From Hericium rajendrae (taxonomy: Eukaryota > Basidiomycota > Agaricomycetes > Russulales > Hericiaceae): 64,000 nucleotides of DNA. Within the stretch, counting starts at the first letter, position 1, and each line of letters begins with the position of its first letter. Of this stretch, positions 8,175 through 51,215 are shown piece by piece. The notes beneath the pieces are model-generated. The model was not told where the DNA came from. It saw only the letters and a program-made list of their open reading frames with translations, and ran no database searches. A program made the position numbers and the translations under genes. The stretch spans positions 124,001 through 188,000 of the forward strand of contig CM065889.1 of the NCBI GenBank assembly GCA_033439255.1. Reading direction: 5' to 3'.

Positions 8175-8248
8175 TGATTCGACCCGGTCTCGAACCGGGG
8201 ACCTTCTGTGTGTTAGACAGATGCGATAACCAACTACGCCATCGAACC
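8175..8248 (-). tRNA. tRNA-Val (anticodon AAC)
   Basis: Minus-strand cloverleaf of 74 bases. The acceptor GGTTCGA pairs with TCGAATC, followed by discriminator A. Anticodon stem TCTGT/ACAGA encloses the loop CTAACAC, giving anticodon AAC. The T-arm is CCCGG-TTCGAGA-CCGGG. No intron. It sits 95 bases upstream of the TRS23 start, on the opposite strand. Confidence 0.93.
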
Positions 8249-9643: not shown

Positions 9644-11479
9644 TCAAATCTGGTGTCCAAGGTTGACATGCACGGCCTTGACTTGGGTATAACTGAAGCA
9701 AGAAATCAGCATTGGAGTGATGTCCCGAAGAAACGAATACGCACGCCTCCAGACCGTACTCTCCCATCTCGCGTCCAATGCCCGACTGCTTGTACCCGCC
9801 GAAAGGCACACCTGGGTGCACCATGTTCGCACAATTGACCTGCTCGCATCTTGTCAATGATATGCACCAAGTCCACCACCACACCGTCACGTACCCAGAC
9901 CGTCCCCGCCTGCAACTTATGCGCAACTGTTATGGCCTTGTTAATGTCCTGGGTGAACATCGCAGCCGCGAGCCCATACAGCGTGTCGTTCGCCTGCCGC
10001 AGCACGTCCTCCTCGTCCTCGAACCGGATCACCACGCCCACCGGCCCGAAGATCTCCTCCTTCACGATGCGCATGTCCGGCGTCACGTCCGTGAAGATCG
10101 TCGGCTGCACCCAGAAGCCCTCCGCGCCGTGCCGCGCGCCGCCCGTGTGCACCGTCGCGCCCGCGGCCTTCCCGTCCGCGATGTAGCCCATGACGCGGTC
10201 GTACTGCGCCTGCGAGACAAGCGGGCCCTGGTCCGTCTCCGCGTCGTGCGGGTCGCCGAGCCGCAGCGCCTGCGTCTTCGCCGTGAAGCGCGCGAGGAAC
10301 GCGTCGTACACCCCCGCCTGCACGAAGATGCGCGAGCCCGCGCAGCACGCCTGCCCGTGGTTCCAGTAGAGCCCGTGCGCGGACCAGCCGACCGCCTTGT
10401 CGAGGTCCGCGTCGTCGAAGATGATGTTCGGGCTCTTCCCGCCGAGCTCGAGCGTCACCTTCTTCAGGTTCGTCGTCGCGGCGGCTTCCATGATCTTGCG
10501 CCCGACGAGCGTGCTGCCGTGAACGCGACCTTGGGGATGTCCATGTGCGCCGAGATCGCGGCGCCGACGGTCGGGCCGTATCCGACGAGCACGTTCACGA
10601 CGCCGTCGGGGAAGCCTGCTTCCTTGACGAGGTGCAGATGCGCAGCGCGGTGAGGGGCGTGAATTCGGAGGGCTTGAGGACGACAGTGTTGCCAGTTGCA
10701 AGCGCGGGGCCAAGCTTCCATGCCATCATCATCACTACGCAAAAGTCAATAAGGAACGCGCAGAACTTGCAATTAGACTCTGGGACACGCACAGGGGAAG
10801 TTCCAAGGGATGATCTGCCCGCAGACGCCGATGGGCTCATGGCGCGTGTACGCAAGCGTGTTCTCGGAGGTCTCAATGACCTTGCCCTGGATCTTGTCCG
10901 CGAAACCCGCGAAGTACTTGAGCGTCTCGATGGAGTTCGCAACGTCAGCCCTTTTCGCCCATCCGAATGTCTTGCCTGAACACGGATAGACGTGAGAACC
11001 GGGCGCCTGGATGGCGGCTAGAAGACCGACCGTTGTCCAGCGCCTCGATCGCCGAGAACTCGTCCTGGTCCCTTTCGAGGAGCGCGGCGAGCTTTGCGAT
11101 GAGCTTCCCGCGCTCGGTGCCAGGGCAATGGAGCCCCCAGACGGTGTCGAAGGCGCGCTTGGCGGCTACGACCGCGCGGTTCACGTCGTCGGGCGTCGCT
11201 TCGGACACCGATGTGATGACCTTGCCGTTGGCTGATACGGACCCTCTCAGCAATCGACGCCTACACGGCGTACAGGTAGGAGCAGAAACATACTGGGGTT
11301 GATAACACTGCAACACAACAGCAAGTCAGAAGTATGTGCTTGTCGCAAGGAGATCGCGCTCACTCGATGGTCTTGTTCGTACTTCCGTGCGAGAACTTGC
11401 CGTCGATGAACACGCCTGTCGGGTATGAGACCTTGCCCTTGAAGGTTGGGGTGTCGAATTCGTGTTCCCAAGTCGTCAT
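9644..11479 (-). CDS. Aldehyde dehydrogenase, paralogue 1
   Basis: NAD(P)-dependent aldehyde dehydrogenase, class 1/2 type, about 500 residues. It oxidises aldehydes to acids; the substrate is not predictable here. Minus-strand exons begin 11479-11364, then a 14-base exon 11307-11294, then 11231-11031 and 10975 onward. Near the 3' end, introns are at 9894-9840 and just before the final [16 protein letters not shown]. Catalytic blocks are present: [17 protein letters not shown] (general-base Glu) and [13 protein letters not shown] (nucleophile Cys), then [19 protein letters not shown] and [18 protein letters not shown]. Frame shifts of one base are needed near 10640 (before [10 protein letters not shown]) and near 10512 (between VAFT and [11 protein letters not shown]). 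It lies in tandem with paralogue 2 and is most like paralogue 3. Confidence 0.92.
11294..11307 (-). other. 14-nt micro-exon of ALDH paralogue 1
   Basis: Minus-strand exon TGTTATCAACCCCA between introns 11363-11308 (GTGAGC...CAG) and 11293-11232 (GTATGT...CAG). It joins the codons for TI-D and T-NGK to give the family block VINPTNGK, which is missing without it. Confidence 0.8.
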
Positions 11480-11558
11480 GGTGTCTGTGCGGCAGTAAAG
11501 GTAAAAATAATCAAGGCGAGAAGGGGGGATAATGAGACAGCATGCCACATTTCGACAG

Positions 11559-11565
11559 CTTTATA
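11559..11565 (-). promoter_or_regulatory. TATA box of ALDH paralogue 1
   Basis: TATAAAG on the minus strand, about 80 bases upstream of the ATG at 11479. Confidence 0.5.
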
Positions 11566-13531
11566 CGTCGAAGGCTTCCAATTGACTTGCCCAGATGGCG
11601 ATCCCGTCTCTGCGAGGAATGTTACATATTCCAATTTCCATCAGAAGTACATGGCGCTCGTGTGCTAGGCGATGGATTGCGAATGAATATTTACTGTTTC
11701 TGTAACAGGATCACGAAACGGAAAAAGCAACGTGTAAAATGTGTCAAACCGTAGGCACTAATGGAAATCGGACGACGACTGATGAAGACGATATCAATCT
11801 GGCCATGACCGTACTGCGATCCTATACAGACGTCAGGTGGTATATCCAGGCGTTTGTTGTCCGCAGAACACAGGGAAGTCAATCGCCACAGGAACCAGAA
11901 GAAGGCTTGGGTAGACCCTGCGAGGAAACGCGTTGCGGTTTGATGACCACAATCAATTAGTCCAATGCTTCTTCATTGCGGCTAGGCGGGGACGGAGGTC
12001 AGATGGATACAGTTCGATTTTCGATGGTGAGGACGTACCTGGGGAAGCGGAGCGTAGCATCTAACCTTACCGCGATACCAGTTTCATACAGTAGAGCGTC
12101 AAATGTCGGCCGCAAGGGGGTGTAGACCTCGTTGACATTGATATAGCCCCCAAGGAAGGAGACATGATCTATGTTGAAAGCAGAATGAATGTAGATTATG
12201 GTACCGTGCATGGTAACGCCCGGCGGTAATACACCAGCGACGATATGTCGCTTCTAGGGCGATCTGCAGCATGGCAAAGAAGTCGGGTCATCCGGTTTCA
12301 CAAAGAACAACCGATTGTCCCATGTTCGCGAAAGTTTCTGAAAAGGAAGTAGAAATCATGATAGCGCTGCATCGAATGCATGGAAATGAAGATTGTGGGG
12401 ATCACATCGTGTGTTATTACTTGTCGCTAAATCGACTGTCGGCGGTGTCTGGTGGAAACGGCTGCAATTGCGCGAGACATAAGTATCTCCATCCAGATAT
12501 CCACCCGTTAATGTATCTCGGCGCACGTCCTACGGAAAAAATTCGGTGTACGAAAATCTCTGGGCCACGCACCACAGAAAGCACGGCTCGAGCAGAATGG
12601 CCGTTGTTGATTCTACGGTGTTTGTTATTCGCGGATCCACGACAGGTGTCTGGAATGTTCACGATGGTGGATCCAAACTAGGACATAGCGATAATATTAC
12701 CGGCGAAACAGAGCTGGGGATCAACCGGAAGATCTGCTCCAATTCGGTAGGTGCTGGTACAGAGTCTGCAAAACAGACAGCACCACAGCACGAGGAAAAA
12801 ATTGCGGGACTCACGTGGCTTGGCAGAGGCTCAAAATACCATTTCAGAAAAGATAGAAATGCTGGACATCTCTATTTCTGAACCTCATCGGGAGTGTTTG
12901 CAGGTAAGTACTAGGATGGCCGTGACGCAGATGCGGAGGTTTCATGACGTAAACATCTCGTCCCGGCCTCTGTGGGCTTGCTGTGGGCACTTCTTCACAT
13001 TCACCACCGGTATGGCGTTACCAGTGACGGGTGCGATGGATGATTCGATACTGGGTGGCCTGCGAGTCTGGAGGTAAAAAAAAAAAAAATAGACACAATG
13101 TCGTCCAGGACGCGAAGTTGGGAGACGCGTTGGTGGCGCACAAGCGACGAATGAGGCAACTTTGCTTGAAAGGGTACACTTTTCTGCGGCCCGTCAGCGG
13201 CTCGCCTGCCATTGAACCAGTTTCATAGGGCTCGGCAAAATGACCGTTTCAAAAATCTTCGCGGAGTGTAAGATGGTCAAAACTTGTCGGAGAATGGGAT
13301 CTAGTTGGTTGACTACGCTGGGCTACTTGCCGAGGATGAGGCCGAGGCTCCCGGATCCAGATAACAGTTTATGAAATGCGTATATAAAGTCCAATATGAC
13401 TATAGCGCCTAGGAGGCGATGTTACACTGCCAGTGAACAATGGAGATCTAGTATAAATAAGTGGATGTGGGTAGATGTACATTGAGATCTCTTGATGATA
13501 TTCTAAGCAATCTGGGAGTTGCACGCTAGAT
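11566..13531. other. Intergenic between tandem ALDH genes, no gene seen
   Basis: About 2 kb with stops in all frames at short intervals and no recognisable domain. It contains a run of 14 A at 13076-13089. The left end is the promoter side of ALDH 1, the right end the 3' flank of ALDH 2. Confidence 0.5.
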
Positions 13532-15492
13532 TCACGGAATGATAATGATTCCTCCAAGGTTTAAATGGACTGCCTTGACATTTGTATATCTGCAATCGAG
13601 GGTAAGCAGGTCGCGATATAACGGATGGTGCAAATTTATACTACGCACTCAAGTACGCCATCCTCTCCATGTTCTCGCCCGATTCCGGACTGCTTGAAAC
13701 CCCAAACGCGACCACAGGGCTCACGATGCTTGCCTCATTGATCTTATGCGCGTGTAGTATAAATCAGTAAGAAACACGATGCTCTCAGACCGACACAGCT
13801 ACGCACCCATGTTGTCCCCGCCTGTAACCGATGCGCCATCCTCACCGCTCTTTCCACGTCCTTCGTGAATATTCCCGCCGCGAGGCCATAGATCGTATCA
13901 TTCGCCATGAGTATTGCATCTTCCTCGGTTTCAAACCGCATCAATGCGACAACAGGGCCAAAGCTCTCTTCGCGCGCGATCCGCATGTCCGGCCGCACGT
14001 CCGTAAATATCGTCGGCTCGATCCAGAGGCCATGTGCGCATGCCGGTGGCCGCCGAGGTGCAGCGTTGCACCCTCGGTGATGCCGGACTGGATGTGTGCC
14101 ATGATGCGCGTGAAGTGAGCCTGTGATGCCTGCGGGCCCTGCGTCGTGGCCGGATCAAAGGGGTCGCCGAGCTTAATCGCGCGCGCCACGGCGGTGAAGC
14201 GCGCGAGGAACTCGTCGTAAATGCTAGTGTGGACGAAAGACGCGAGGTGGCGACGCAGACCTGGCCAGCGTTGAAGCTGAATTGGATGCGTTGAGTTCAT
14301 TGTCGTCGGTTAATTCAATCAAATTGATAACTCACAAGCTTCCGTGCGCAGCCCATTTGACCGCTTTGTCCAGATCCGCGTCGTCGAAAATGATTGCAGG
14401 ATTTTTCCCGCCAAGTTCGAGGGTGATCTTCTTCAGGTTGCTTCGCGCCGCCGACTCCATGATCTTCTTCCCCGAAGCCGTGCTGCCGGTGAACGTGACT
14501 TTGTCGATGTCCATATGCTCCGTGATGGCATGGCCAACAGTGCGACCGTATCCTACTACGACGTTAATGACACCATCGGGGATGCCTGCTTCCTTGATGA
14601 GACTGCAGAAGCGCAGAGTCGTCAGTGGGTTGATTTCGAAGGTTTGATGACGACGGTGTTGCCTGCAGCGAGCGCGGGGCCGACCTTCATGAGCACCATC
14701 ATGACTATATTCACGAAAACGGGATAAAAATGAGGATCCCTCACGCAGACAGGTTATGGTTTGTTGTCAATACGTACGAGGGAAATTCCAGGGGGAGATT
14801 TGGCCACAAACGCCTATGGGTTCGCGTCGCGTGTATGCAAGCTTGTTCTCGGTCGTCTCTATGACTTTTCCCTGGATCTTGGAGGCCCAGCCGGCATTGT
14901 ATCGCAACGAAGCTACCGCTACGGACATGTCCAAAATTTTAGCAGACATGAATGGTGTGCCTATAAGGGGCCCCGGGTTTCGTATGCATCGTCAGCACCG
15001 GCCCATACTACATAACTGATCAAGTACACACCGCTATTCAAAGCCTCGATGGCGGCCAACTCATTTTGATGCGTCTCAACGAGATCTGCGAGTCTCGACA
15101 GCAGCCGACCACGCTCAGTTCCAGGACACTTCAGCCCCCAGATGGTGTTGAAAGCCTTCCGCGCAGAAACAACGGCACGATTGACGTCATCTGCGGTAGA
15201 TTCTGCTACGTGGGTAATCGTCTTGCCAGTCGCTATGACAGACAGCGGTGGATTAGCAACATCGGGCGCAGGATGTGAAAATCATCGGACGTACTTGGGC
15301 TGATGACACTGTGAATAGAATGCAAGTAACAAATCATGATCTATTCCATACACCACAGGAAGTGCCAAACACATACGGGATTGTTTTCTTGGTGCTGCCA
15401 AAGGAGAATTGCCCGTTGATATACACGCCGGTTGGAAAAGAGACCTTGCCTGTGAAGACGGAAGTATCGAAATGATGCGTCCAAGTCGACAT
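13532..15492 (-). CDS. Aldehyde dehydrogenase, paralogue 2 (divergent)
   Basis: Same family and gene plan as paralogues 1 and 3. Exon 1 is 15492-15377 (116 nt), then a 14-nt exon 15308-15295. The protein starts [20 protein letters not shown]. Catalytic Glu is in [19 protein letters not shown]. The nucleophile Cys is in [12 protein letters not shown], differing from the CCAGSR of its sisters. Further blocks: [20 protein letters not shown] and the C-terminal VKAVHLNLG, ending at 13532. One-base frame shifts are needed near 14245 (around SR-FVHTS), near 14060 (after HLGGHRH) and near 14637 (PS-EINPLTT), so it is either decaying or error-laden. The C-terminal region around 13700 also matches less well than in the other copies. 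Confidence 0.88.
15295..15308 (-). other. 14-nt micro-exon of ALDH paralogue 2
   Basis: Minus-strand TGTCATCAGCCCAA between introns starting GTATGT (15376) and GTACGT (15294). It restores the block PVISPTTGK and has the same length and phase as in the other two paralogues. Confidence 0.78.
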
Positions 15493-37496: not shown

Positions 37497-39396
37497 ATGA
37501 CGACGTGGGAACACCGGTTTGATACCCCGGCCTTCAAAGCCAAGGTCTCTTTCAATACAGGGGTTTTCATAGACGGTAAATTCTCGCATGGAAGCACAAA
37601 CAAGACAATCGAGTGAGTCCCCTTCTTCGAGCTTCATCGGCGAAGAGTTTCTGACCCACATGCTTTTCGTACAGAGTCACCAGTCCTGGTACGTCTGCAT
37701 CTCTTCCACTCTGGCCGATGGGATCTATCTCAATGGGAATACACATACCCCAGCCAACGGCAAAATCATTGCCATGGTGTCCGAAGCGACACCTGAGGAC
37801 GTCGATCGCGCCGTCGTTGCGGCTCAACGTGCCTTTGACACGGTCTGGGGTCTCAAATGCCCTGGGAGCCGAGCGCGGCAGGCTCATAGCGAAGCTGGCA
37901 GCCCTTCTCGAGGCGCACCAGGATGAACTCGCTGCGATCGAGTCGCTGGACAATGGTAGGCCTTGCATGCTGAGTTTAGTCGAAATTGTGTGGGGTAAAC
38001 TGATTGAACATAGGCAAAACGTTCGCGTATTCTAGAAGCATAGACATCGCGAACGCGATCGGTACGCTGAAGTATTTTGCTGGGCTCGCAGACAAGATCC
38101 AGGGCAAGGTCATCGAGACCTCGGAGGACAAGCTTGCGTACACTCGCCACGAGCCCATCGGCGTCTGTGGTCAAATCATCCCGTGGAATGTCCCTGGTGC
38201 GTGTTCCCGAACTCTGAAGGTGTTCTATCGCACTCCTGACTTTTTCTACGCAGTGATGATGATGGCATGGAAACTCGGCCCTGCCCTCGCGGCAGGCAAC
38301 ACCGTCGTCCTCAAGCCCTCTGAGATTGCACCGCTCAGCACGCTACGCATGTGCAGTCTCATCAAGGAAGCGGGCTTCCCCGACGGCGTCGTGAACGTGC
38401 TCGTCGGGTACGGTCCAACCGTTGGCGCAGCAATCTCGGAGCACATGGGTATCCGCAAGGTCGCATTTACAGGCAGCGCGATCGTCGGACGCAAGATTAT
38501 GGAGGCCGCAGCGAAGACGAACTTGAAGAAGGTCACGCTTGAGCTCGGCGGGAAGAGCCCGAACATCATCTTCAACGACGCGGACCTCGACAAGGCGGTC
38601 AATTGGACTGCCCAAGGAATCTAGTGAGCGCTCTATCTCTCACTCCAACATATGTAGCCAATCGAGGCGCAACGCCCAGCTGGAACAATGGCCAGGTATG
38701 CTGCGCCGGCTCGCGCATATACGTGCAGGCCGGGATCTACGACGCCTTCCTCGAGCGCTTCACCGCCATATCGCAGGCACTCCGGCTCGGCGACCCGCTC
38801 GATGCGGAGACCTATCTGGGCCCACTTGTCTCGCAGGTGCAGTTCGATCGCGTCATGGGCTACATCGAGAGCGGCAAGGCTGCGGGCGCGACGGTGCACC
38901 TCGGTGGCGCGCGGCACGGCGCGGAGGGATACTGGGTACAGCCGACGATCTTTACGGACGCAACACCGGATATGCGCATCGTGCGGGAAGAGATTTCGGA
39001 CCCGTGGCCGTGGTGATCCGATTCGAGGATGAGGAGGACGTGCTAAGGCAGGCAAACGACACGCCGTATGGGCTCGCGGCGGCAGTTTTTACTCAGGATG
39101 TCAACAAGGCAATCACGGTGGCGCATAAGCTGCAGGCCGGGACAGTCTGGGTGCGTGTAGATGTCCCTGTACTCACTTAATGCAGTTGCTGATGAATTCT
39201 GAGTAGGTGAACTGTGTCAACATTGTAGTTCCATCTGTGCCGTTTGGGGGGTACAAACAGTCGGGCATCGGTCGCGAGCTGGGAGAATGTGGTCTCGAAG
39301 CGTGTGTATATCCTCGTTCGCGATATATCTGTGGTGCTGATCTGTCGTTCTAGTTATACACAAGTCAAGGCCGTGCATGTCAATCTCGGACACTAG
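37497..39396 (+). CDS. Aldehyde dehydrogenase, paralogue 3
   Basis: Aldehyde dehydrogenase of the same plan as paralogues 1 and 2, on the opposite strand about 22 kb away. Exon 1 37497-37612 (116 nt), micro-exon 37675-37688, exon 3 from 37754. Later splices join QGI-YWNNGQ at about 38623 and TVW-VNCVN at about 39150. The start [19 protein letters not shown] is near-identical to paralogue 1. Catalytic Glu is in [18 protein letters not shown] and catalytic Cys in [15 protein letters not shown]. The protein ends AVHVNLGH. One-base frame shifts are needed near 37862 (after KCPG) and near 38994 (within REEI-FGPVAVV). High similarity to paralogue 1 suggests a fairly recent duplication. Confidence 0.92.
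37675..37688 (+). other. 14-nt micro-exon of ALDH paralogue 3
   Basis: AGTCACCAGTCCTG between ACAG (ending 37674) and GTACGT (37689). It yields the bridge EVTSPANGK and is equal in length and phase to the micro-exons of paralogues 1 and 2. Confidence 0.78.
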
Positions 39397-40819: not shown

Positions 40820-41207
40820 ATGCCGTAGGTCCTCAGCCATGACGTGTTCGAAGATGATTTGAAGGATCTTTTGTCCGCAACACGGAGAGTTGAACAAAGT
40901 CAAAAACTCGAAGGGTATGCTCAATCATATCGCTTATCTCGACTTTATATACGAGGACGAGCTTAAACAACATTACGAGGTTCAATACTGTCACGTTCGT
41001 AAAGGGATAGGCCCTCTGCCGGTGTTTCATTTCCACAGAGTGAACGATGGTGTGCCGCGGATACGGAAGAACGGATGTCCGACAAGGGACTGGTTCCACC
41101 GACGTCGAGCAGCGCACTGCGGGCGACGCAAGATGTGGTACCCTGCGGACCCTTGGACAGAAGAGTCTAAATGTTGGATGTCTCGAAAGGCTATCTATGC
41201 GAAGTAG
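40820..41207 (+). pseudogene. WVLG-family small protein, broken copy A
   Basis: Degenerate member of the unnamed family described for the next gene. The start region reads MP-stop-VLSHDVFEDDL, matching MAWVLGYDMPLSALDEF with the Trp codon turned into TAG. The frame then changes, and the C-terminal half is recognisable: VFHFHRVND, CPTRDW, GRRKMWY and SRKAIYAK align with YFHRTNKK, MPTKAQ, GRREMWY and PRRAIYGD of copy B. The stop plus frame change make it a likely pseudogene. Confidence 0.6.
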
Positions 41208-41742
41208 AACCGGCTTCGATGTCTCTGGATCGAGCTCAGCAGAGGTATCGGTCAGGAAGAGACCGTCAGCATTAACTATTCAGGAGCCAGAGATGGAGAA
41301 ATAGACAGCCTTTGGTCCGAGTTTCGAGGCGGTATGTAAATATCTTTCCATCCATCTTCTGGCTCCCGTTGATGATCACTCAAAGATAGAATGCGAATGT
41401 TGCTTAGCTCAGTTCTGTCCATCGTTATTTCCGTATTCAGTATCCCAGTCACGGTCTTGTAGGATAGCTACACACAGATCCGTTCAGCCAATTGGTAGCT
41501 GCTGCTATGCTGTAAGGATAGCATCAATTTGCAATCGGAAAGGTGCCTCGTGCATACTGCGTGCATCACCAATTAAGACGCCCGGTGTGTCAAGAAAATG
41601 GGACTCACGAGACTGACTCGACAGGCTGATACGTATACATACTTAAGGACAGGCCGTTTCGACGTCGAACCATTGCAGACGCACCATCTGTACACGTCCT
41701 CCCGTCCACAGCTCTCGACTTCAGCACTCACACTGCATCTCA
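41208..41742. other. Intergenic between WVLG copies A and B
   Basis: No gene seen. TATA-like TACATACTTAAG sits about 105 bases before the copy B ATG. Confidence 0.4.
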
Positions 41743-42138
41743 ATGGCGTGGGTGCTCGGCTACGACATGCCGCTTTCTGCCCTTGATGAATTCAAAAGAG
41801 TTCGCGGACTCAGTAAACACAACGCATGGGAGGTCGTATATAAGGAGACATTCAAAGTATTCCAACGGCGCTTGTCCTCGTCCTGGACAGTAGACGCTGC
41901 CGGAGACCTAAACCAAGTATTATATTTCCATCGAACGAATAAAAAGGACCCTCAACTCGATCTTGATAATTCCAAGATCGCAATGCCGACGAAGGCGCAG
42001 ATTCTGCAGCTCCGCCGCCTGTTTGGGCGTCGAGAGATGTGGTACCGGGATTGGGACAGATACAAGACGGCGTTGCCGCCAAGAAGAGCAATCTATGGGG
42101 ACGACGAACTCGACAGAGAGGACCAATTAGCAGTTTAG
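41743..42138 (+). CDS. WVLG-family small protein, copy B (131 residues)
   Basis: Intact single-exon gene of a small family with four members in this window. Shared with the other copies: the start MAWVLGY, a central W-T-x(6)-G with VLYFHR, a PTKAQI...LRRLFG segment, the core GRREMWY, and a Pro/Arg-rich PPRRAIYG ending. The sequence is charged with no signal peptide or membrane segment, so it is probably a soluble cytosolic or nuclear protein. I do not know the function. It may be one of the lineage-specific fungal families that lack a named domain. Confidence 0.65.
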   Translation: MAWVLGYDMPLSALDEFKRVRGLSKHNAWEVVYKETFKVFQRRLSSSWTVDAAGDLNQVLYFHRTNKKDPQLDLDNSKIAMPTKAQILQLRRLFGRREMWYRDWDRYKTALPPRRAIYGDDELDREDQLAV

Positions 42139-42561
42139 GAACGGATGGAGACAATGGCTATCAGGGAAGAGGAAGAGGAGACAGCGGAGGGTGCCGGGCA
42201 CTGAGGCAGTCCGACGATATGATGGTTGACGAGTAAGTCATTTCATTCGCCGCTCACCGCTATCCTCAAGTTGATGTCCTCATGATAGGACTCATCGATA
42301 CGAAGTCTCGAAAACCAGAATTATGCCGTGGAGAAAACAGTGTTGATACCTGGCATAGTCTCGTAAATCTTAGTATCAGTGCGGATGATGTCACGTTGCA
42401 GGATATGCGTATGAAGGAACATGAGCAGACGTCAGCAGACGAGACGGAACAAGATAGCAGGAGACATTGATAGAAAGCAGGACCAGTGACACAGTGAGCA
42501 AAGCAGAGAACAGCAAGACCAGCACGAAGCACAGAGCACAGAACAAGCAGAACACGGCAGA
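42139..42561. other. Intergenic, no gene seen
   Basis: 3' flank of WVLG copy B, rich in ACAGAGCA/AGCAGA-like A/G repeats near 42480-42560, then the 3' end of the convergent coiled-coil gene. Confidence 0.4.
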
Positions 42562-43649
42562 CTAGAAGAAACTGAACGCGCCCGAGTCCTTCTGACAGAC
42601 GATCTTCAGCTGCTTGAGCATCTGCTGCGCTGCCTCAGCGTCGTCTTTGTCGAATTGTTTGGACTTCTTCTCGGAGCTCGCGAGCAGTTTGCTGACGTCC
42701 TTGGGAGAGGCGTTGAGGCGGTCGCGCATGGCGTCTGCTGTGGGATCGAAATGCGAATGAGAACAGATCAGTGCTGCCCAACGACGGACGACACGACATT
42801 GGAAACAGAGTGGAGATAGAATTACCCTTTTCCTTCAGCTGGGCCTTGAACTTCTCGTCTATCTTCGCACGATTCGCAAGCCGCTTCTCTAGCTCTGCGA
42901 GCAAAGGCGCGACCTTTTGCTGAAGAGGCAATATATCGAGTAGTCCATCATGAGAGAGGGGACACACAAACCTGACTGCTCTGCACCGCCCTTGCCATCT
43001 CGCCATCATCGAACTCGATCTCCTCGAAAGCGCGGCACACATCAGCGAGACCGATGATGCTCTCCGCAAAGATTTCGCCCTGCTCGTTGAGCTGCGCGTG
43101 GACGTTGCGCACACGCCGCATCGTAGGCAAAAGCACATTGGCGATGTCTTCTTTGCGGGTCTGCGCGGCCTTGGTGAAAGCCGGTTGCAGAGAGTCAACG
43201 AGCTCCGCAACGGTGTCCTGAGTTTTCGCGAGTGTCGGGCTGGGGCAATATGCGAAAACGTAATGTTGATGGAGAACATAAGATGTACCTTTGTTTCAGT
43301 AGGGACACGAGGGTCTCCTCCTCGTCCCAATCAGATTCCTCTTCTTCAGGTTCGCCTTCTGACTCTTCGTCTTCGGAGTAGTCGTGTCCTCTGGCATTGC
43401 TAAACTCCCTCAACGCATCGAAAGGGCGGTCTTCCTTTCCGATGGAGGAGCGAGGCGTTCTTCGAGGCTTGTTTGAAGATGTTTTTTCGAATCGAGCCCG
43501 TTTGAATGGTGTAGACGTGAAGTATGCTGAAAAGGGTGAGTATATGCGCGCAAATCAATAGATGAAAGACCATTACAGCGCTCCCGACGCCTTGTACTTT
43601 CCGGCGAGAGTGCCTCTTTCTTGAGCAGTGGGGTATGGTTGCGCACCAT
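42562..43649 (-). CDS. Coiled-coil hypothetical protein
   Basis: Multi-exon minus-strand gene of about 275 residues. The ATG at 43649 gives MVRNHTPLLKKEALSPESTR. Then, across an intron, comes YFTSTPFKRARFEKTSSNKP (basic). An acidic block follows (EDEESEGEPEEEESDWDEEE), then long helices: VLLPTMRRVRNVHAQLNEQG and PLLAELEKRLANRAKIDEKF. The end is LASSEKKSKQFDKDDAEAAQ...DSGAFSFF. The basic-acidic-helical layout suits a chromatin or kinetochore adaptor, but I cannot name a family. It is divergent from the ING gene, with 176 bases between the ATGs, so a shared promoter is likely. Confidence 0.55.
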
Positions 43650-43825
43650 GATGAGTTCTAGCAGATGACGACGAAGGAGGGAGACAAGTTGAAGCACTGA
43701 GCAAGTTGTGGTGAGCTCGAGGCCGTTTACCAGGACACGCGCGTTGAATCTCCGATTGAGAGCCGCTGAGGTGGCGCCGTCTTAGTCAACAGCAGTGCAC
43801 TTCGAACAGTTCCCACGACCCCATC

Positions 43826-45356
43826 ATGGCTTCGAGCCGCAAACGACGACGCTCTGTCGCATTTCCCCGCAAATCCATCCCACAGCTTGAACTCGACGAT
43901 GCTGCCAACGACGGCGACTACAACGCTGAAGGGGTTGACACGGAGGAGCAAGATCCATCTAGGATGCAGGACTTGTGGGACGCGTTCAGCGAGGAGTTTC
44001 ACGAAAGTGCGTGTTTGAGTACGCGTTCTGTATCTGCGAACTAACGATATTGGCGCGTATCAGCCATGGAGCAACTCCCTCTGTCCCTGCATCGCTTATT
44101 CACCCTACTGCGAGAACAGGACATGAAGACTACTGGTCAGTCTCCCCGACCTTTGTAGCACACATCTCGCTTACCGACATCTTCACACAGCGGACAACGA
44201 GCAGCTGCTCGCTGGACTCCAGCAGTACATCACTCTAAGGAGAATTGCAGCTGGCCAGATCGCCCCTCCAGAAGAGAAGGATCCGTCTCTACCGGAAGCA
44301 GCTCCTGATCCCGATGCGCTACCTGTACTTGATCTAGGACACATGTCGGATGACGCCTCCAGACAATCAGAGACCTCGCGGCCATCACGACCAGAACGGC
44401 GCGTCAGCGCACGCCTCAACCGATCACCATCGAAGAAATCCATATCTCCTTCCAAGAGATCGAGGCAGGGCACCGCCTCTGCAGTTCCTCGCCCGTGACA
44501 CCATTCACTGTCAAGTCTGCCCCGGCCCGTCCTGCGAAACCTCCGCCCTCACCCCCACCAACAACGCGCGATATCCTGATGCGTATCGCGACACTGATGG
44601 ACGACCTCGTGCTCTCCTCGCACGAGAAAGCTAACCTTGCGAAAGCCGCATACGACTCCGTAAGCCGCCTCCTCACTCTCTCCAGCGCGCGTCACTGAAC
44701 CCCCTCCCTCCAGGTCGATAGACATGTCCGCCTGCTCGATCAGGCCATCAAAGACCAAGAAACCGCGATCCAGTACGGCAACCTCCCCGGCCTGCACGTC
44801 CGCCTCCTCCCGCCGCTCGCTGCCCCGCGGCCGACGCGCCCCGTCCGCTTCGAGTCCAGCCCGCTGCTCGAACCCGAGGCCGCGCCGGAGGCGGAAGCGG
44901 AGACCGTCCCATCGAAGGAGAAGGGCCGCGCGCAGAAGCGGCGCAAGGCGTCTGTTAGCGCGGAGCCGGAGGAGGCGCGGCAGGGCAGGCCGCTGAAGCT
45001 GCGCATTCCGCCGCGGCCGTCGACTACCGTGCCCGCGGGCGAGCAGGTCAATCCGAACGAGCCGCGGTATTGCTACTGCAATGACGTGTCGCATGGAGAG
45101 GTGCGTGGTTCTTGCTTTTTGTCGTACGGTAGTTGGCTGACGTGCGATTTGTAGATGGTTGCGTGTGATAACGATGACTGTCCTATCGAATGGGTGGGTA
45201 TACTTTTTATTATTGGATTAGAGTGGATGTTGATCATTTTGCGAACAGTTCCATCTCAAATGCGTGGGGCTATCCGCGCCGCCGGCTGAGAACGAGTCGT
45301 GGTACTGCCGCAACTGCAAGGAGCCGTCGATCGCGCCAAAACGCAAGGGACGTTGA
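43826..45356 (+). CDS. ING-family PHD-finger protein
   Basis: Inhibitor-of-growth type subunit of a histone acetyltransferase or deacetylase complex (NuA4/Rpd3 class), which reads H3K4 methylation. N-terminal ING helices: FHETMEQLPLSLHRLFTLLREQ and LLAGLQQYITLRRIA; DDLVLSSHEKANLAKAAYDS and HVRLLDQAIKDQE continue the helical domain. A basic linker follows. The C-terminal PHD finger spans CYCNDVSHGEMVACDNDDCP then FHLKCVGL and WYCRNC, a full C4HC3 set assembled across two introns. The start at 43826 is the first ATG. A one-base shift near 44490, before TPFTVKSAPARP, is required. The protein has about 375 residues and a long Pro/Ser linker for the family. Confidence 0.88.
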
Positions 45357-45784
45357 CGGTCTTCTGCCGCTATATGGATCTTCCTTCTTCACTAGCATAT
45401 CGGTTGTTTCCTCCCTTTTTGGTGTCTTTGTACGTACTGGTGTAACAATAATATGTACAGGCGGAGCGTCTCGTGACAGTGGATATCCAATTTACTATGA
45501 ACACTTTGGGGCCGCACTCGAACTTTTTGCCTCTTATCGTAATCTATGAATTGAGGACTGAAGTGAATAAAATGGATGCTAAAATGGTACGGCGAACACA
45601 GTCAAAACTGTCACAAAGGAATGTTGCGACTGGAACTTGTGGTCATGACCATCAGTGCAGATAGTTGTTGAGTTGACGAGAACCTCGATGTCGCGAGCGC
45701 CAGAATAACTTCTGTCCTCGACTCATTCATGCAGCTCACCACGACCTTGCCACTGTCATAAGCCCCCATGCTTCTAGATATCTC
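45357..45784. other. Intergenic, no gene seen
   Basis: AT-rich 3' flank of the ING gene and leader of the RCC1-type gene. Confidence 0.45.
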
Positions 45785-47116
45785 ATGCTAAACACCAACG
45801 CATCCTATAAATTATATGCCGCAGGCTCCAACGCCAAAGGACAACTCGGGATCGGTTCCGAAGATGATGCCCACACCTTCACACCCTGCCTCTTCCACTC
45901 CCCAAATCACTCCTCAGACCAGCTGCCACCAGATACCGAGTGTATCATCGCCCTAGCCGCAGGCGGCAACCACACTTTGTTGTTGCTATCCTGCCTCACA
46001 GATGATGGCCCATCGCGCCGCGAACTCTGGGGCTGCGGAGACAGCTCGAAAGGCCAACTAGGTCCATCCGATGGAACCAATAACACCTTCTTCCGACTCA
46101 TCGATCTGCACCTAGAGGCACACGGCTTCCCAGGATACACCATTGCGCGGATCGCAGCGTGCTGGGAGACGAGCTTCGTCGTCCTGTCGAAAGCGGGCGC
46201 CAGCGACGTCCTCCTCTCGATGGGCGGGAACGACTTCGGCGACCTCGGTATCGGGGCGTCGTTTTCCCAGGCGAGAGCGACCCGGCCCTTCCACGTCGTC
46301 GATATCGCGCGGGCGGCGGGCGAGTGCGTTCGCTCTGTCGCTGTGCTGGACCTCGTTGCGGGCCCACACCATGTCATCGTTCGCATCCGCGCGCAATATG
46401 AAGATGGGACGGCGCGCGTGCTCCTCGTAGGATGGGGCACGGCCCGGAATGGCCAGCTCGGGCCTATTCTTTCTGCGTCTGGACGGCCTGCGCCATTCGT
46501 ATCGCACCCTCATGCCGTCTCTCTTCCGTTTGCAGCAGAAGACATCACGGCTCTTGCGTTGGGCAATCAACACACCGTGCTTCTGCACACCTCGGGACGG
46601 CTTACGGGTCTAGGTTCAGACAAGAGAGGCCAGCTCAGCGGCCTTGAAGCCGTAGAGGGCGCACGCCAGATCGGGTGCACATGGAACGGGACGTATGTCC
46701 TTGTGGGCGACGGCGACGGCGAGCCGACGCTACTGTCATGCGGTAGCCGCGCAAGAGGACAGCTCGGACGCATGGACGCCGTTGCATCCTTGTCTGCTGT
46801 CCAGTTTCCGGTGCCTGCGCGACCGCGCAGGTTCGCGTGCGGCAGCGAGCATGTCTTGGTGCTGGCCTTGACGGCGCCGAGCTCGGAGGAGCGAGAGGTG
46901 TGGGGATGGGGGTGGAATGAACATGGAAATCTGGGCACTGGGTCGCTGGAGGATGTGCATGCTCCTGTCAGGATCTGGCCGCCTGCGCTTGTGCGCGCGG
47001 ATTCGCGCTCGGTTGATGAGGAGGTGGTCGGCGTCTGGGCTGGCTGTGGGACAAGTTGGATCGCTGTTCGCTCTGCAGGCATGCCTGTTGATAATGCTAG
47101 ACATGCGGTTCCTTGA
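45785..47116 (+). CDS. RCC1-repeat protein (Ats1/Kti13-like)
   Basis: Uninterrupted 443-residue frame with RCC1-type beta-propeller repeats: LYAAGSNAKGQLGIG, LWGCGDSSKGQLG, SMGGNDFGDLGIG, LVGWGTARNGQLGP, GLGSDKRGQLSG, SCGSRARGQLGR and WGWGWNEHGNLGTG, i.e. seven blades. Length and repeat number resemble Ats1/Kti13, which partners Kti11/Dph3 in diphthamide and tRNA wobble modification; the assignment within the RCC1 superfamily is inferred. The ATG at 45785 precedes the first blade directly. No introns or frame breaks. Confidence 0.8.
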   Translation: MLNTNASYKLYAAGSNAKGQLGIGSEDDAHTFTPCLFHSPNHSSDQLPPDTECIIALAAGGNHTLLLLSCLTDDGPSRRELWGCGDSSKGQLGPSDGTNNTFFRLIDLHLEAHGFPGYTIARIAACWETSFVVLSKAGASDVLLSMGGNDFGDLGIGASFSQARATRPFHVVDIARAAGECVRSVAVLDLVAGPHHVIVRIRAQYEDGTARVLLVGWGTARNGQLGPILSASGRPAPFVSHPHAVSLPFAAEDITALALGNQHTVLLHTSGRLTGLGSDKRGQLSGLEAVEGARQIGCTWNGTYVLVGDGDGEPTLLSCGSRARGQLGRMDAVASLSAVQFPVPARPRRFACGSEHVLVLALTAPSSEEREVWGWGWNEHGNLGTGSLEDVHAPVRIWPPALVRADSRSVDEEVVGVWAGCGTSWIAVRSAGMPVDNARHAVP

Positions 47117-47995
47117 TCCTCGACATCGTCACGCGCGTCTTTTAGCTCCGTACCCGAGCGCGCGAAGTCAATCTCGCCAGGCATATGCTTCCAACTGTCC
47201 CGGATGTCCTTCCATCTGCCCATCGCATGTCAACGGCGATTTTGGCAAGTCTGTATCCTGCATTACTCGAACCCAAGCGCCGAACTCGCTTTACTCTTCC
47301 TGGACGCGCGACAGCAAAGTATATACCCGTGGGCAACAGAGGTAACAAGATGCCGCTCATGCTATCCAAACTTTCGGTGGAGCTGCATTATCGCTGGGGT
47401 GGAAGGAATGAAAGTGGCGAGATGCGGACTCTGGCTGATCTTCGCGCACGTATCGCGTGGTGACCTAGATTTCAGGGTACACTCTTGCTGAGATGGACGT
47501 ATACGAGACACTCATTATCTCAGGCATCTGGAGTCTCAAGCTACTCGCCTAGCTTGGACCAGCTACCCGGCCAGAACCGAGACAAAAGTTGTCGCGCAGA
47601 CTCTGTTCCATCGCGCGCTCTTCCTTTCATGGAACCACCGCGACCCTTCACCTCAAGAATCATTACTGCACATATCCTTCTTGCGATGCGATGTCCGGTC
47701 ATAAAGTCCTACGCTTTCGGTGCTTGTCGCTCGCCTGGACCGATAGGCACGGCTTCATCGCCAGCTTTGAACAATTGCGGCATGCGCGAATGTGTGTTGC
47801 TTTGACCCGTGTGTCCTTATCACGCTTTGTTTTGCACTCGGGCCCCCACGTCTACCAGATTGGCTTTGACCCTGCGCGTGCCCATATAAGCAGCGCCCCG
47901 CGACCCCACAGGTATACTCAAGACGAAGTGACCGCCTCTCCTATTGACGTGTCCGTACCCAAGACTTTTATCCACCCCTCGTCCTTATTCTTAGC
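47117..47995. other. Intergenic, no gene recognised
   Basis: A plus-strand frame of 92 codons (47185-47463) has no domain. The right end holds the DUF7770 promoter, with CATATAAGC at about 47882-47890. A short motif near 47550 (GCCTAGCTTGGACCAGC) echoes the ends of the WVLG genes at 48908 and 50258. Confidence 0.4.
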
Positions 47996-48611
47996 ATGGT
48001 AAGGCTTCATGTTATCAATCCCGATGTCGAGCTGACAATCTGTGCAGGCCGAAAACGCCCTTGAGAAGTGGCTCCGTCAAACCCGGTGTTCCTGGCACTC
48101 GTCATATCTCGACCACGCCGATCTATCCAAAGAGATCTGTACGATCGAATTCTGTGCACATGCAGACAAGGCGGACATGGAACAACGTTGGCCCCCCAGC
48201 AATCGGTGGACAATGCTTCTAATCACGGGTGCCGACCACGCCGTGAGCATCGAGATATTCTCGAAAACGCAGAACCCGCACGCCGTTTGCACCGTTGTTG
48301 TGCAGACGAGAAAACATCCTATCGATGGGCACGATTACATGCTGACGGTGCCAGCGACTCCGCCTCCTGGCTTTCAGGTGCAAGACGTCTTGCTGCTCCT
48401 CATCAGACAGCGCCGCGATCACTACAGGCTCACCGAGTTTGGTGAAGGCCATCGGTGGTGGATGCATAAAATCTCGTGCGACATGCGCTACGCTGGGCTG
48501 CTCTCGACGGCCAATGTGATCAAGCTGCACAAGGCGCTGTCGAGGTACTGGAGAACGCCGGCAGAGAAGGGTTTTGAGCTTACTCCTTTGGAGGCGGGAC
48601 GATTCTACTAG
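47996..48611 (+). CDS. DUF7770-type protein
   Basis: Agaricomycete protein of the DUF7770 type, about 188 residues, function unknown. The predicted first coding exon is only ATG (47996-47998), followed by the intron 47999-48047 (GTAAGG...GCAG) and exon 2, 48048-48611. Family features: WTMLLITGADHAVSIEIF near the middle and HYRLTEFGEGHRWWMHKISC near the C-terminus, then ALSRYW. Without the ATG-only exon the first Met would lie well inside the conserved region, so the split start is the better model. It lies next to the WVLG duplication. Confidence 0.68.
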
Positions 48612-48967
48612 CAATCTGTGCAGGACGAGCATTGACTTCGCTTTTGCTATATCCGCGTTGATTCTTGCTTCAATACATTTGAAAGACTTGCAATCCTGCG
48701 AATCAGCTGCGGCACAGTCTCCGTTGTGACACCAAGAAGAACGAGCCATTTTCGCAATAGCTATTCCTGTGAAGATTTTGTATACGAGATATCCTGAATA
48801 CTCAGACTCTCCTCGTGACTTCCCCCTCCTCTTGATCATCATAATGTGGAACTCAAATTCTCCTGGAATGCCGACAATGTTCGTTGATATCATCATCAAG
48901 TCACTTGCCTAGCTCGGACCAGCCTTCGAATCGGACGTATCTCCATCCTCGCACACTTCCTCGATCC
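48612..48967. other. 3' flank of DUF7770 gene and left end of duplication
   Basis: GATTCTTGCTTCAATACATT at 48649 and CACCAAGAAGA, TCTCCTGGAAT downstream recur at 49977 onward, marking the start of the tandem duplication. No gene seen. Confidence 0.5.
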
Positions 48968-49408
48968 TCATGCTTCCCCGATCCTCATGCTTCCCATTCT
49001 TTCCTGAATTGTCTCATCCAACGGCGCCTGCTGCCTGGGTGCTTCTACATAGACAACGGGCCGTGACGGTTTATCGTGGAAGGCGTTGTTGGTCTTCCAG
49101 TACCACCTTTCTCGAAACCCAAGTCGGGTCCGCAGAGGCTCCATCTCTTCGTTCGTCGGACAGTCGCCCGTCCCGTCGAGCTGGGGAGGCTCTGCCTCCG
49201 ATGTTCTATAGAAATATATGACAGAGACGTCATTTCCGCCCTTCCCCTCGCATTGGGTCCATTTGCGCGTGCGTGTGGGCAACAAAGCTCTAGCCTGCAT
49301 CATTGTCCAATGCAAGGGCGAAAGTGTGTCGTCGGGTGGTATGTCCTGAGTCTGTCGAATTTCTTGGAGAAAAGAATCTGACAGCGCGAAGCCGAGGACC
49401 CATGTCAT
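48968..49408 (-). CDS. WVLG-family small protein, copy C (146 residues)
   Basis: Single-exon minus-strand gene starting MTWVLGFALSDSFLQEI. Conserved with copy D: KWTQCEGKGG with VIYFYRT, CPTNEEMEPLRTRLGFRERW followed by YWKTN, and RPVVYVEAP. No signal peptide or membrane segment. Function unknown. The start is set by the family-wide MTWVLG start. Confidence 0.65.
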   Translation of the reverse strand: MTWVLGFALSDSFLQEIRQTQDIPPDDTLSPLHWTMMQARALLPTRTRKWTQCEGKGGNDVSVIYFYRTSEAEPPQLDGTGDCPTNEEMEPLRTRLGFRERWYWKTNNAFHDKPSRPVVYVEAPRQQAPLDETIQERMGSMRIGEA

Positions 49409-49548
49409 TTTTGAAATACAGAAATGGTGGATTCGAGCCTGTTGAAAGGGATCGATAATGAATGAGTGGTGAGTCTGCGAACTCTGCACATGCTGTACTT
49501 ACGTCGTCTCCAGCGTGCTCTTCAACGCACGTTGTAAACAGGTGTTGA

Positions 49549-49938
49549 TTATCCAAACCTTAGATGACCCCGCGTAGCCTTTGATTCCGAATCATAAATC
49601 GCCACGCACCGATCATTGGACGATAGACTCCCTTCATCCAGACTCCAGCCCTTTCCTGTCTCCGTTTCGCGCAAGCGCCCGCAACCCGATGAAGGAGCCA
49701 AGAACACTGACAGCAAGCCCCACCACTCAAACGGAGCCATCGGAACCCCGGCAATGGCGTGTTGCATGTGGTCAAGAACTCGAGATGCGGCAGAGGTGAT
49801 GTACTCCAAGCGATCGCAATCGCAGAAGAGCGCGATGCAGTAAACGCGCGCCTTCCACGCAGGATGTAGAGCAGACTCCGATCTGGATGCTATGATGGGT
49901 TCTATTGGCAGTCCACGGTATGAGCTTTGAAGGTGCAC
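49549..49938 (-). CDS. Hypothetical protein fragment upstream of WVLG copy C
   Basis: Open frame encoding RVYCIALFCDCDRLEYITSA, then FEWWGLLSVFLAPSSGCGR and NDRCVAIYDSESKATRG. The part near 51000-51200 in duplication copy 2 encodes the same layout (ALSYKICDAELLERIVLPP, WGLLSVLLAPS, NDRCIASYELKATRG), so selection on the protein at some time is likely. The N-terminus may lie in further exons upstream. No named domain recognised. Confidence 0.4.
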   Translation of the reverse strand: MHLQSSYRGLPIEPIIASRSESALHPAWKARVYCIALFCDCDRLEYITSAASRVLDHMQHAIAGVPMAPFEWWGLLSVFLAPSSGCGRLRETETGKGWSLDEGSLSSNDRCVAIYDSESKATRGHLRFG

Positions 49939-50248
49939 ACGTCACTCAGACGATTCCTGCAACTGTCACCCCGCTGATTCTTGCTTCGATATATTTCCTT
50001 CTAATTGCCCCCAAGTCAGGGAGTTCTGAAGATTTACGATCCTTTGAACGGGGTACGTCTCAGTTTTTGTTACCACACCAAGAAAAATGAGCGATGCCAG
50101 CGTACACTGCTGCTGCTCATGTGCGCAAAACATGTTCTCCTAGGTATTTAAACTTTCATCGTGACCGGCTCTCCTTTTAGCCATCAAAATCTGGTACATA
50201 AAATCTCCTGGAATTAATTCCACCACCATGACGAGGACGATGAGTGAC
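49939..50248. other. Spacer between duplication copies
   Basis: Carries the 3' flank of WVLG copy D and the duplication junction; no gene seen. Confidence 0.45.
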
Positions 50249-50689
50249 CTACCCATCTAGCTCGGGCCAGCTTTTGACTCGGACATGTGTCCGTCCTCGC
50301 GCTCCTCCTCGATCCTGATTCTCTTCATCCCTTCCTGAACCGTCTCGTCCACCGGTTCCCGCATAGACAGCGGGCCGTGGCGGTCTACTACGGGCTCTGT
50401 TGGTCCTCCAATACCACATCTCTCGAATCCCCAGTTCAGCCCGCAGTGGTTCGATTTCTTCGTCCGTCAGACCGCCCATATCACCAAGCACAGGAGAATC
50501 TGTCTTGCCCCATTCGCAGAAGTATGCAACGATGACGATTGTCCCATCATGGCCATCGCACTGGATCCAGTGGACCTCGCGCCGAGTCAACACAGCTTCG
50601 ACCCGCCTCGATGCATTTCTCATATCGATGAATCTCATTTCGGGCTTACTGACCAAGTGTTTGAGCTCGAAGCCGAGGACCCAAGTCAT
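50249..50689 (-). CDS. WVLG-family small protein, copy D (146 residues)
   Basis: Same length as copy C and 1.28 kb away. It starts MTWVLGFELKHLVSKPEM. Conserved: VHWIQCDGHDG with IVAYF, LTDEEIEPLRAELGIREMWY followed by WRTN, and RPAVYAG. The C-terminal 35 residues are polar and Gly/Arg-rich (RGGARGRTHVRVKSWPELDG). A TATA element lies about 145 bases upstream. Function unknown. Confidence 0.68.
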   Translation of the reverse strand: MTWVLGFELKHLVSKPEMRFIDMRNASRRVEAVLTRREVHWIQCDGHDGTIVIVAYFCEWGKTDSPVLGDMGGLTDEEIEPLRAELGIREMWYWRTNRARSRPPRPAVYAGTGGRDGSGRDEENQDRGGARGRTHVRVKSWPELDG

Positions 50690-50832
50690 GTTTAGAAATG
50701 GCGTAAGTATTCGAGGTTGAGCAGTATTTGAATGCTCGATAAACTTTTGGATGCTGTCTTCAACGTGACCTTGTACACGTTGAAACAGGCGATGTTTGAC
50801 AACTACTAACGCTCGAGAGTTGAGATTGAAGT

Positions 50833-50839
50833 GGCCTCA
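50833..50839 (-). promoter_or_regulatory. TATA box of WVLG copy D
   Basis: TATAAAT on the minus strand between the upstream coding remnant and the copy D ATG, which suggests copy D has its own promoter. Confidence 0.45.
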
Positions 50840-50879
50840 TTTATAGCACATGCCCCGCGTGGCCTTCAATTCATAGCTA

Positions 50880-51215
50880 GCTATGCACCGATCATTGGTC
50901 GATAAGCTCCCCGACCCAACTGGGGGGCCAAGATATCCTTTCCCAGTTCCTTATGGTGTAAGTGCCAGCGACAAGTTTTTCACGAAGGAGCGAGAAGTAC
51001 CGACAGCAAGCCCCATGGCTCAGCGCTCAGCGCTCAGCCGAAGCGAGATCTTGACGACAGCTTGCTCCCCGAGGTCGTGGAATTCGAGATGCGGCGGCAG
51101 CACAATGCGCTCGAGGAGTTCGGCGTCGCAGATCTTGTAGGAGAGCGCGTCCGACTCGTTGGAATGGATCCAGTCGTGATCCGTAAGACGTGGGACGTGA
51201 GCATTCGGCGACTCT
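50880..51215 (-). pseudogene. Hypothetical protein remnant upstream of WVLG copy D
   Basis: Minus-strand sequence encoding LTDHDWIHSNESDALSYKIC, EFHDLGEQAVVKISLRL, then after frame changes WGLLSVLLAPS and NDRCIASYELKATRG. It is the counterpart of the frame at 49938-49549. At least two frame changes and a stop are present. Confidence 0.45.

What the first reader, a model, noticed from the sequence alone, without database searches (positions are those of the whole stretch)
40820..50689. An unnamed small-protein family (WVLG family) with four copies in 10 kb
Four small genes share a start M[AT]WVLG[YF], a central W-x-x-C/D...YF block, an EE[MI]EPLR-like helix, the core RE-M/R-WYW and an RP-x-VY/RRAIY ending. 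Copies C and D are exactly 146 residues; B is 131; A is broken. I know no named domain that fits. Copy number, conserved core and variable ends suggest a fast-evolving lineage-specific family, which in fungi often serves self/non-self recognition, defence or development; that function is inference only.
Basis: partly seen in the sequence, partly recalled or inferred. Interest (0 to 1): 0.8.

Follow-up and report, generated by a model that had tools for sequence, protein, structure and literature searches.

The report
Clustered ten-copy fungal small-protein family
A fungal chromosome carries a cluster of ten related small genes of an unnamed protein family that duplicates, swaps sequence between copies and decays; the family is real, but its function is unknown and such clusters are a familiar kind of thing in fungi.

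Summary
The family has ten copies, not four, within 65 kb of one contig (C12:164.8-230.0 kb); four single-protein searches of the 46.8-Mb genome found no convincing copy elsewhere. No Pfam, NCBIfam, PHROGs or PDB-sequence match is significant. It is protein-coding: dN/dS is 0.46 in five copies and 0.49 overall, below 1. Their equal length of 146 is coincidence: C ends in a 17-bp duplication and D's tail is in another frame. Two predicted models give a ferredoxin-like order, with weak matches only. Copy G has an H-like coding exon beneath an E-like upstream region, a gene-conversion signature. Two copies sit tail-to-tail with DUF7770 genes. Best reading: a birth-and-death family of cytosolic binding proteins with a conserved sheet and a variable side; a recognition or conflict role is inference. 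New family, familiar kind.

The parts
40820..41207 (+). Copy A, pseudogene: MP-stop-VLSHD start, frame change, core frame 40863-41204 with RRKMWYP and RKAIY
   Evidence: (profile E 1.1e-10)
41743..42138 (+). Copy B, 131 aa; TAG at 42136-42138, after which the same frame resembles J's tail; closest relative J (39%)
48968..49408 (-). Copy C, 146 aa; tail ended by a 17-bp tandem duplication at about 48961-48994
50249..50689 (-). Copy D, 146 aa; tandem duplicate of C (promoter-side DNA shared too); tail after about 50363 in another frame than the peptide kept in other copies
48144..48611 (+). DUF7770 (PF24968) gene, tail-to-tail with copy C; by eye its amino end lies in another frame (48068 to about 48205)
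   Evidence: (E 6.4e-24); frame change read by eye
49383..51022 (.). Direct repeats (41 nt at 80%, 39 nt at 77%, 30 nt at 90%, spaced ~1.28 kb) left by the C/D tandem duplication

Best explanation
SHOWN: a real protein-coding family of ten copies confined, as far as the searches reach, to one 65-kb cluster; it evolves by tandem and segmental duplication, gene conversion and decay (birth and death). INFERRED WITH SUPPORT: a small cytosolic protein with a ferredoxin-like sheet (beta1 WVLG, beta3 V-Y, beta4 REMWY conserved) and a freely changing side (alpha1, alpha1', beta2) plus a tail that is often lost or altered. INFERRED: it works as a binding protein whose variable side meets a diverse or changing partner, and the cluster supplies a reservoir of variants exchanged by conversion. 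The partner is unknown; the tail-to-tail DUF7770 protein is a candidate. Confidence is about 0.9 for the family and its birth-and-death evolution, about 0.5 for the fold class, and about 0.25 for a recognition or conflict role.
For: Ten profile hits with a clear gap below them: nine are the members themselves, the tenth (A) was not in the profile and scores E 1.1e-10; the next rows, 0.01 and 0.25, overlap D and C in another frame. Genome searches with C, H, J and I: only C12:164.8-230 kb, plus one chance-level C14 row at E 0.91. Omega 0.457 for E,F,G,H,I (lnL -1526.7 vs -1543.3 at omega 1), 0.638 for B,C,D,J (-1653.1 vs -1657.6), 0.492 for all nine (-3135.1 vs -3157.5). Neutral simulations: F-I, F-H, H-I and F-E 0 of 300 at or below observed, E-H 1 of 300, G-H 3 of 298, B-J 9 of 299 and 6 of 300 (two directions). 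Gene conversion: G's exon is 93-100% identical to H over about 400 bp while 1.2 kb upstream matches E (77%) and not H; dS G-H 0.08 against G-E 0.53. Same order of elements in two predictions, pLDDT 54.5 and 72.5. Between the two subgroups identity is 0.58 and 0.61 in beta1 and beta4 but 0.10, 0.08 and 0.07 in alpha1, alpha1' and beta2. No hydrophobic span: max 19-residue hydropathy 0.28-1.19 in nine sequences.
Confidence: 0.5

Rival explanations
1. Two-gene conflict module: WVLG and the tail-to-tail DUF7770 gene act as a pair (for example killer and suppressor, or an allorecognition pair) and were duplicated together.
For: DUF7770 lies convergent 0.26-0.36 kb from copy C and from copy J; of three DUF7770 sequences compared, these two are nearest, 55% against 21% to the C3 copy, and their difference shows constraint (omega 0.39, 0 of 200 simulations at or below).
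Against: Only 2 of 10 copies have the partner; in the flanks (up to 1.5 kb a side) of the other 16 DUF7770 matches nothing scored better than E 4.9 against the WVLG profile; DUF7770 is dispersed over the genome (18 matches); the window's DUF7770 looks frameshifted near its start (by eye).
Confidence: 0.12
2. Small enzyme or ligand-binding protein of the dimeric alpha+beta barrel type (EthD/monooxygenase-like), kept in several diverged copies, perhaps with the neighbouring 2OG-Fe(II) oxygenase-like genes.
For: EthD, olivetolic acid cyclase and hydroxynitrile lyase chains are among the weak structural rows; oxygenase-like genes are duplicated beside E, F and G.
Confidence: 0.15
3. Relict array: the window copies are decaying and without function; only constraint inherited from the past is seen.
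For: Broken or altered copies A, B, C, D; C-D omega 0.74 not below neutral; DUF7770 beside C looks frameshifted (by eye).
Against: Neutral drift to the C-D divergence leaves no stop in the core in only 0.9% of 2000 simulations, and C-D core gaps are 27, 3 and 3 bases in a plain DNA alignment; F, H, I, J are whole in the first exon.
Confidence: 0.2
4. Chance open frames or a mobile-element remnant.
For: Short frames in a GC-rich genome can be open by chance.
Against: Cross-hits at 1e-20 or better, omega below 1, donor-like GTGAGC/T or GTGGGT at the end of E-I; copies found in one cluster only, not dispersed.
Confidence: 0.02

Closest known systems
[quoted passage not shown] abstract and outline seen)
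   Same: Fungal multicopy gene family with rapid change and nonallelic gene conversion (abstract); broken copies (recalled).
   Different: No sequence relation was tested; recalled: Wtf proteins are multi-pass membrane proteins with poison and antidote forms, whereas WVLG proteins show no membrane span, and drive is untested.
DUF7770 (Pfam PF24968)
   Same: Small protein family of unknown function, neighbour of copies C and J.
   Different: No profile relation to WVLG (hhalign probability 0.0%); dispersed in the genome while WVLG was found in one cluster. No paper in the library holds the name.
Ferredoxin-like (beta-alpha-beta-beta-alpha-beta) folds such as ribosomal protein S6, acylphosphatase, EthD
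   Same: Order of secondary-structure elements in both models.
   Different: No significant match by Foldseek or PDB sequence; an additional helix alpha1'.

Membership tests
Known protein domain family (Pfam, NCBIfam, PHROGs) | Score over the curated cut-off, or E well below 0.001 | tested here: not met
   9 of 9 members scanned; best Pfam E 0.15 (BLF1, 11.9 bits against cut-off 25), best NCBIfam 0.04, best PHROG 0.046
DUF7770 (PF24968) | WVLG proteins match the DUF7770 profile or align to it | tested here: not met
   no DUF7770 row for 9 members at E <= 5; hhalign 0.0% against a three-sequence DUF7770 alignment
Ferredoxin-like fold | beta-alpha-beta-beta-alpha-beta order with a four-stranded sheet | tested here: inconclusive
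wtf-type killer meiotic drivers | multicopy family with nonallelic gene conversion | tested here: met
   ten copies, G/H/E mosaic; this feature alone is not specific
wtf-type killer meiotic drivers | membrane-spanning poison and antidote (recalled) | tested here: not met
   max 19-residue hydropathy 1.19 in nine sequences
wtf-type killer meiotic drivers | biased transmission in crosses | not testable with these tools
   needs crosses
Fungal allorecognition (het-type) genes | strain polymorphism under balancing selection and incompatibility on fusion | not testable with these tools
   one genome only
Secreted effector | amino-terminal signal peptide | tested here: inconclusive
   hydropathy only, no signal-peptide predictor: best 9-residue mean in the first 30 residues 0.19-1.81, highest in C; leans against

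The most novel reading that the evidence does not exclude
The cluster is a fungal genetic-conflict or allorecognition locus of a type not yet described: a ferredoxin-like small protein with a hypervariable side, a convergent DUF7770 partner, and coding exons exchanged between copies by gene conversion while promoters stay in place.
Probability: 0.1. Interest if true: 0.75.

Novelty: new member of a known kind. Interest (0 to 1): 0.36.

Why it matters
If the recognition or conflict reading is right, the locus gives a compact, testable candidate for non-self recognition or drive in what is probably a basidiomycete, a group in which somatic incompatibility is called poorly understood (PMC8229728, abstract start in the listing). 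If not, it is still a family without a name in Pfam, NCBIfam or PHROGs, with a clear case of gene conversion confined almost exactly to a coding exon.

Tried and rejected
Chance ORFs: rejected. A remote copy of DUF7770: rejected. WVLG genes beside the other 16 DUF7770 matches: nothing better than E 4.9 in flanks of up to 1.5 kb. The C6 pattern hit: a chance 17-mer, no family ORF. Bacterial/archaeal and viral relatives: none confirmed (35 and 21 pattern stretches). Telomere at the contig start: no repeat seen in the first 600 of 3000 fetched bases, the part I read. Viral structure library: no match at E <= 0.001. Papers: DUF7770 0 papers, RREMWY 0 papers; searches listed no title on such a family. 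PADLOC was not searched. YN00 failed on most distant pairs, so NG86 and codon maximum likelihood were used. First neutral likelihood runs used kappa 2.0 and were repeated with the fitted kappa. In one search undefined simulated ratios were set to 0; one search repeated the test with them counted apart (0 to 2 of 300), with the same outcome.

Full report
What is there. The window is C12:124001-188000 of a 46.77-Mb genome in 19 contigs, taken as a basidiomycete by inference. Copies B, C and D are open frames at the stated places; A is a pseudogene. Single-protein searches of the whole genome with C, H, J and I gave 7, 10, 8 and 7 rows, all in C12:164.8-230.0 kb except one C14 row at E 0.91. The tool calls its counts lower bounds, and very remote or intron-split copies could be missed. 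A profile of nine members run over six frames of 144 kb gives ten copies: the nine themselves, and A, which was not in the profile, at 1.1e-10. The next two rows (0.01 and 0.25) overlap D and C in another frame. I label the outside copies E (192.6-193.2, minus), F (195.4-196.0, minus), G (212.0-212.6, plus), H (226.4-227.0, plus), I (228.3-228.8, plus) and J (229.5-230.0, plus), all C12 kb.

Subgroups. The codon tree, without support values, splits E-I from C,D, with B and J apart. Within E-I core protein identity is 55-95%; C-D is 38%, B-J 35%, and between E-I and the rest 22-29%. Invariant over nine: L5, G6, V59, Y61, L90, R91, R97, E98, W100 and Y118 in B numbering.

No known family. Nine of nine members gave nothing near a cut-off in Pfam (best E 0.15), NCBIfam (0.04) or PHROGs (0.046), and the profile gave nothing better than E 0.84 in PDB sequences. 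Fungal proteomes could not be searched, so the range of the family is open.

Coding or not. GY+F3X4 omega is 0.457 for E-I, 0.638 for B,C,D,J and 0.492 for all; fixing omega at 1 with the fitted kappa costs 16.6, 4.4 and 22.4 log-likelihood units. Many between-group distances are saturated, so these ratios are rough. Neutral simulations on 8 of the 36 pairs: one search gave 0 of 200 at or below observed for F-I, F-H, E-H, H-I and F-E, 3 of 200 for B-J, 9 of 200 for G-H, and 73 of 200 for C-D. One search, with undefined ratios counted apart, gave 0 of 300 for F-I, F-H, H-I and F-E, 1 of 300 for E-H, 9 of 299 and 6 of 300 for B-J (two directions), 3 of 298 for G-H, and 120 and 98 of 300 for C-D (two directions). 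For C-D an open core would survive neutral drift in 0.9% of 2000 simulations; over six pairs the figures are 0.5-42%, the last being the close pair G-H. A plain DNA alignment of C and D has core gaps of 27 (16+11 across a line break), 3 and 3 bases. So C and D kept their frame but changed residues at a nearly neutral rate: relaxed or diversifying; the data do not separate these.

Tails. E-I keep a peptide that in E, F, H and I ends near AGPS, followed in all five by GTGAGC, GTGAGT or GTGGGT, after which their DNA no longer aligns: a donor site and intron, by inference. In C a 17-bp duplication ends the frame; in D the main frame leaves this peptide just after RPAVY; in B a TAG stands in the tail. 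J's frame near its end also differs from the AGPS frame, so the tail is loosely held throughout. Hence the equal length of C and D is coincidence. E has a 67-nt insertion after codon 3 with GT..AG ends (intron or lesion, undecided), and G a single-base insertion at codons 4-5.

Duplication and conversion. C and D are a tandem duplication that includes promoter-side DNA. E with its neighbouring oxygenase-like gene is an inverted duplicate of G with its own (ORFs 67.5% identical; upstream DNA of E and G 77% over 1168 bases). Yet G's coding exon is 93-100% identical to H in 60-base steps from 0 to about +420, while from -1200 to about -60 G and H match at 27-47%, about the level of unrelated sequence. 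Synonymous distance is 0.08 for G-H and 0.53 for G-E. Simple descent does not give this mosaic; ectopic gene conversion of about half a kilobase does. That H was donor and G acceptor is the likelier direction, not proved.

Neighbours. DUF7770 lies tail-to-tail with C (48144-48611 plus) and J (C12:230242-230697 minus). The two are 55% identical, omega 0.39, against 21% between the window copy and the C3 copy, the only other one compared. DUF7770 has 18 matches in the genome, 8 over the cut-off by direct score and one more with its neighbours; flanks of the other 16 gave nothing better than E 4.9 for WVLG. I scanned 172 of 241 chosen ORFs with Pfam (173 entries, one ORF in two pieces) in four sets; left out were ORFs under 95 aa, those of L017, the WVLG frames, ORFs across a locus border and a number of shorter overlapping ones; the RCC1 frame was scanned. 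Hits include RdRP, aldehyde dehydrogenase, G-gamma, Vps54, PIG-X, myotubularin, glyoxal oxidase, 2OG oxygenase, DUF382 and a short-chain dehydrogenase: an ordinary chromosomal neighbourhood with several local duplications. Of the three oxygenase-like genes one passes the Pfam cut-off, one is below it and one had no row.

Reading. Shown: a real, unnamed, clustered family evolving by birth, death and conversion. Supported but weak: a cytosolic ferredoxin-like scaffold with a variable side. Inferred: binding of a diverse partner in recognition or conflict. Rivals are a partner-module with DUF7770, a small enzyme, and a partly relict array. Lineage-specific tandem families are common in fungi (general knowledge), so I score interest modestly.

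Noticed in passing
C12:212.0-212.6 kb (L012) with L010 and L013: Copy G has an H-like coding exon under an E-like 1.2-kb upstream region: ectopic gene conversion bounded closely by the exon.
   Followed up: yes
C12:193.8-195.2, 210.0-211.6, 212.8-214.0 kb: Three related 2OG-Fe(II) oxygenase-like genes interleaved with copies E, F and G, sharing segmental duplications; only the 210-kb one passes the Pfam cut-off.
   Followed up: partly
L017:7896-9245, window 2821-4095 and L010:893-2008: Three related ORFs within 70 kb (39-52% identical); RNA-dependent RNA polymerase matches occur in the ORF sets of the window and of the region beyond it, but I did not tie them to these ORFs.
   Followed up: no
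window ~9700-15300 and ~38000-39200: Duplicated ORFs (mostly 60-88% identical stretches), perhaps the aldehyde dehydrogenase genes (8 ORFs of that set match Aldedh).
   Followed up: no
L050, L052, L053, L055-L060: Nine dispersed loci with weak DUF7770 matches, six in frames of exactly 162 aa; same-score frames recur in their flanks: perhaps a dispersed repeat carrying a DUF7770-like frame.
   Followed up: no
C12:193157-193223 (copy E): 67-nt insertion with GT..AG ends beginning with the same GTCCTTGGT that follows it: possible intron gain by local duplication, or a lesion.
   Followed up: partly
window 48068-48611 +: The window's DUF7770 gene seems split between two frames near its amino end, judged by eye against the copy beside J.
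   Followed up: no
window 45677-47113 +: RCC1-repeat protein between copies B and C.
   Followed up: no
window 8175-8248 -: tRNA gene.
   Followed up: no
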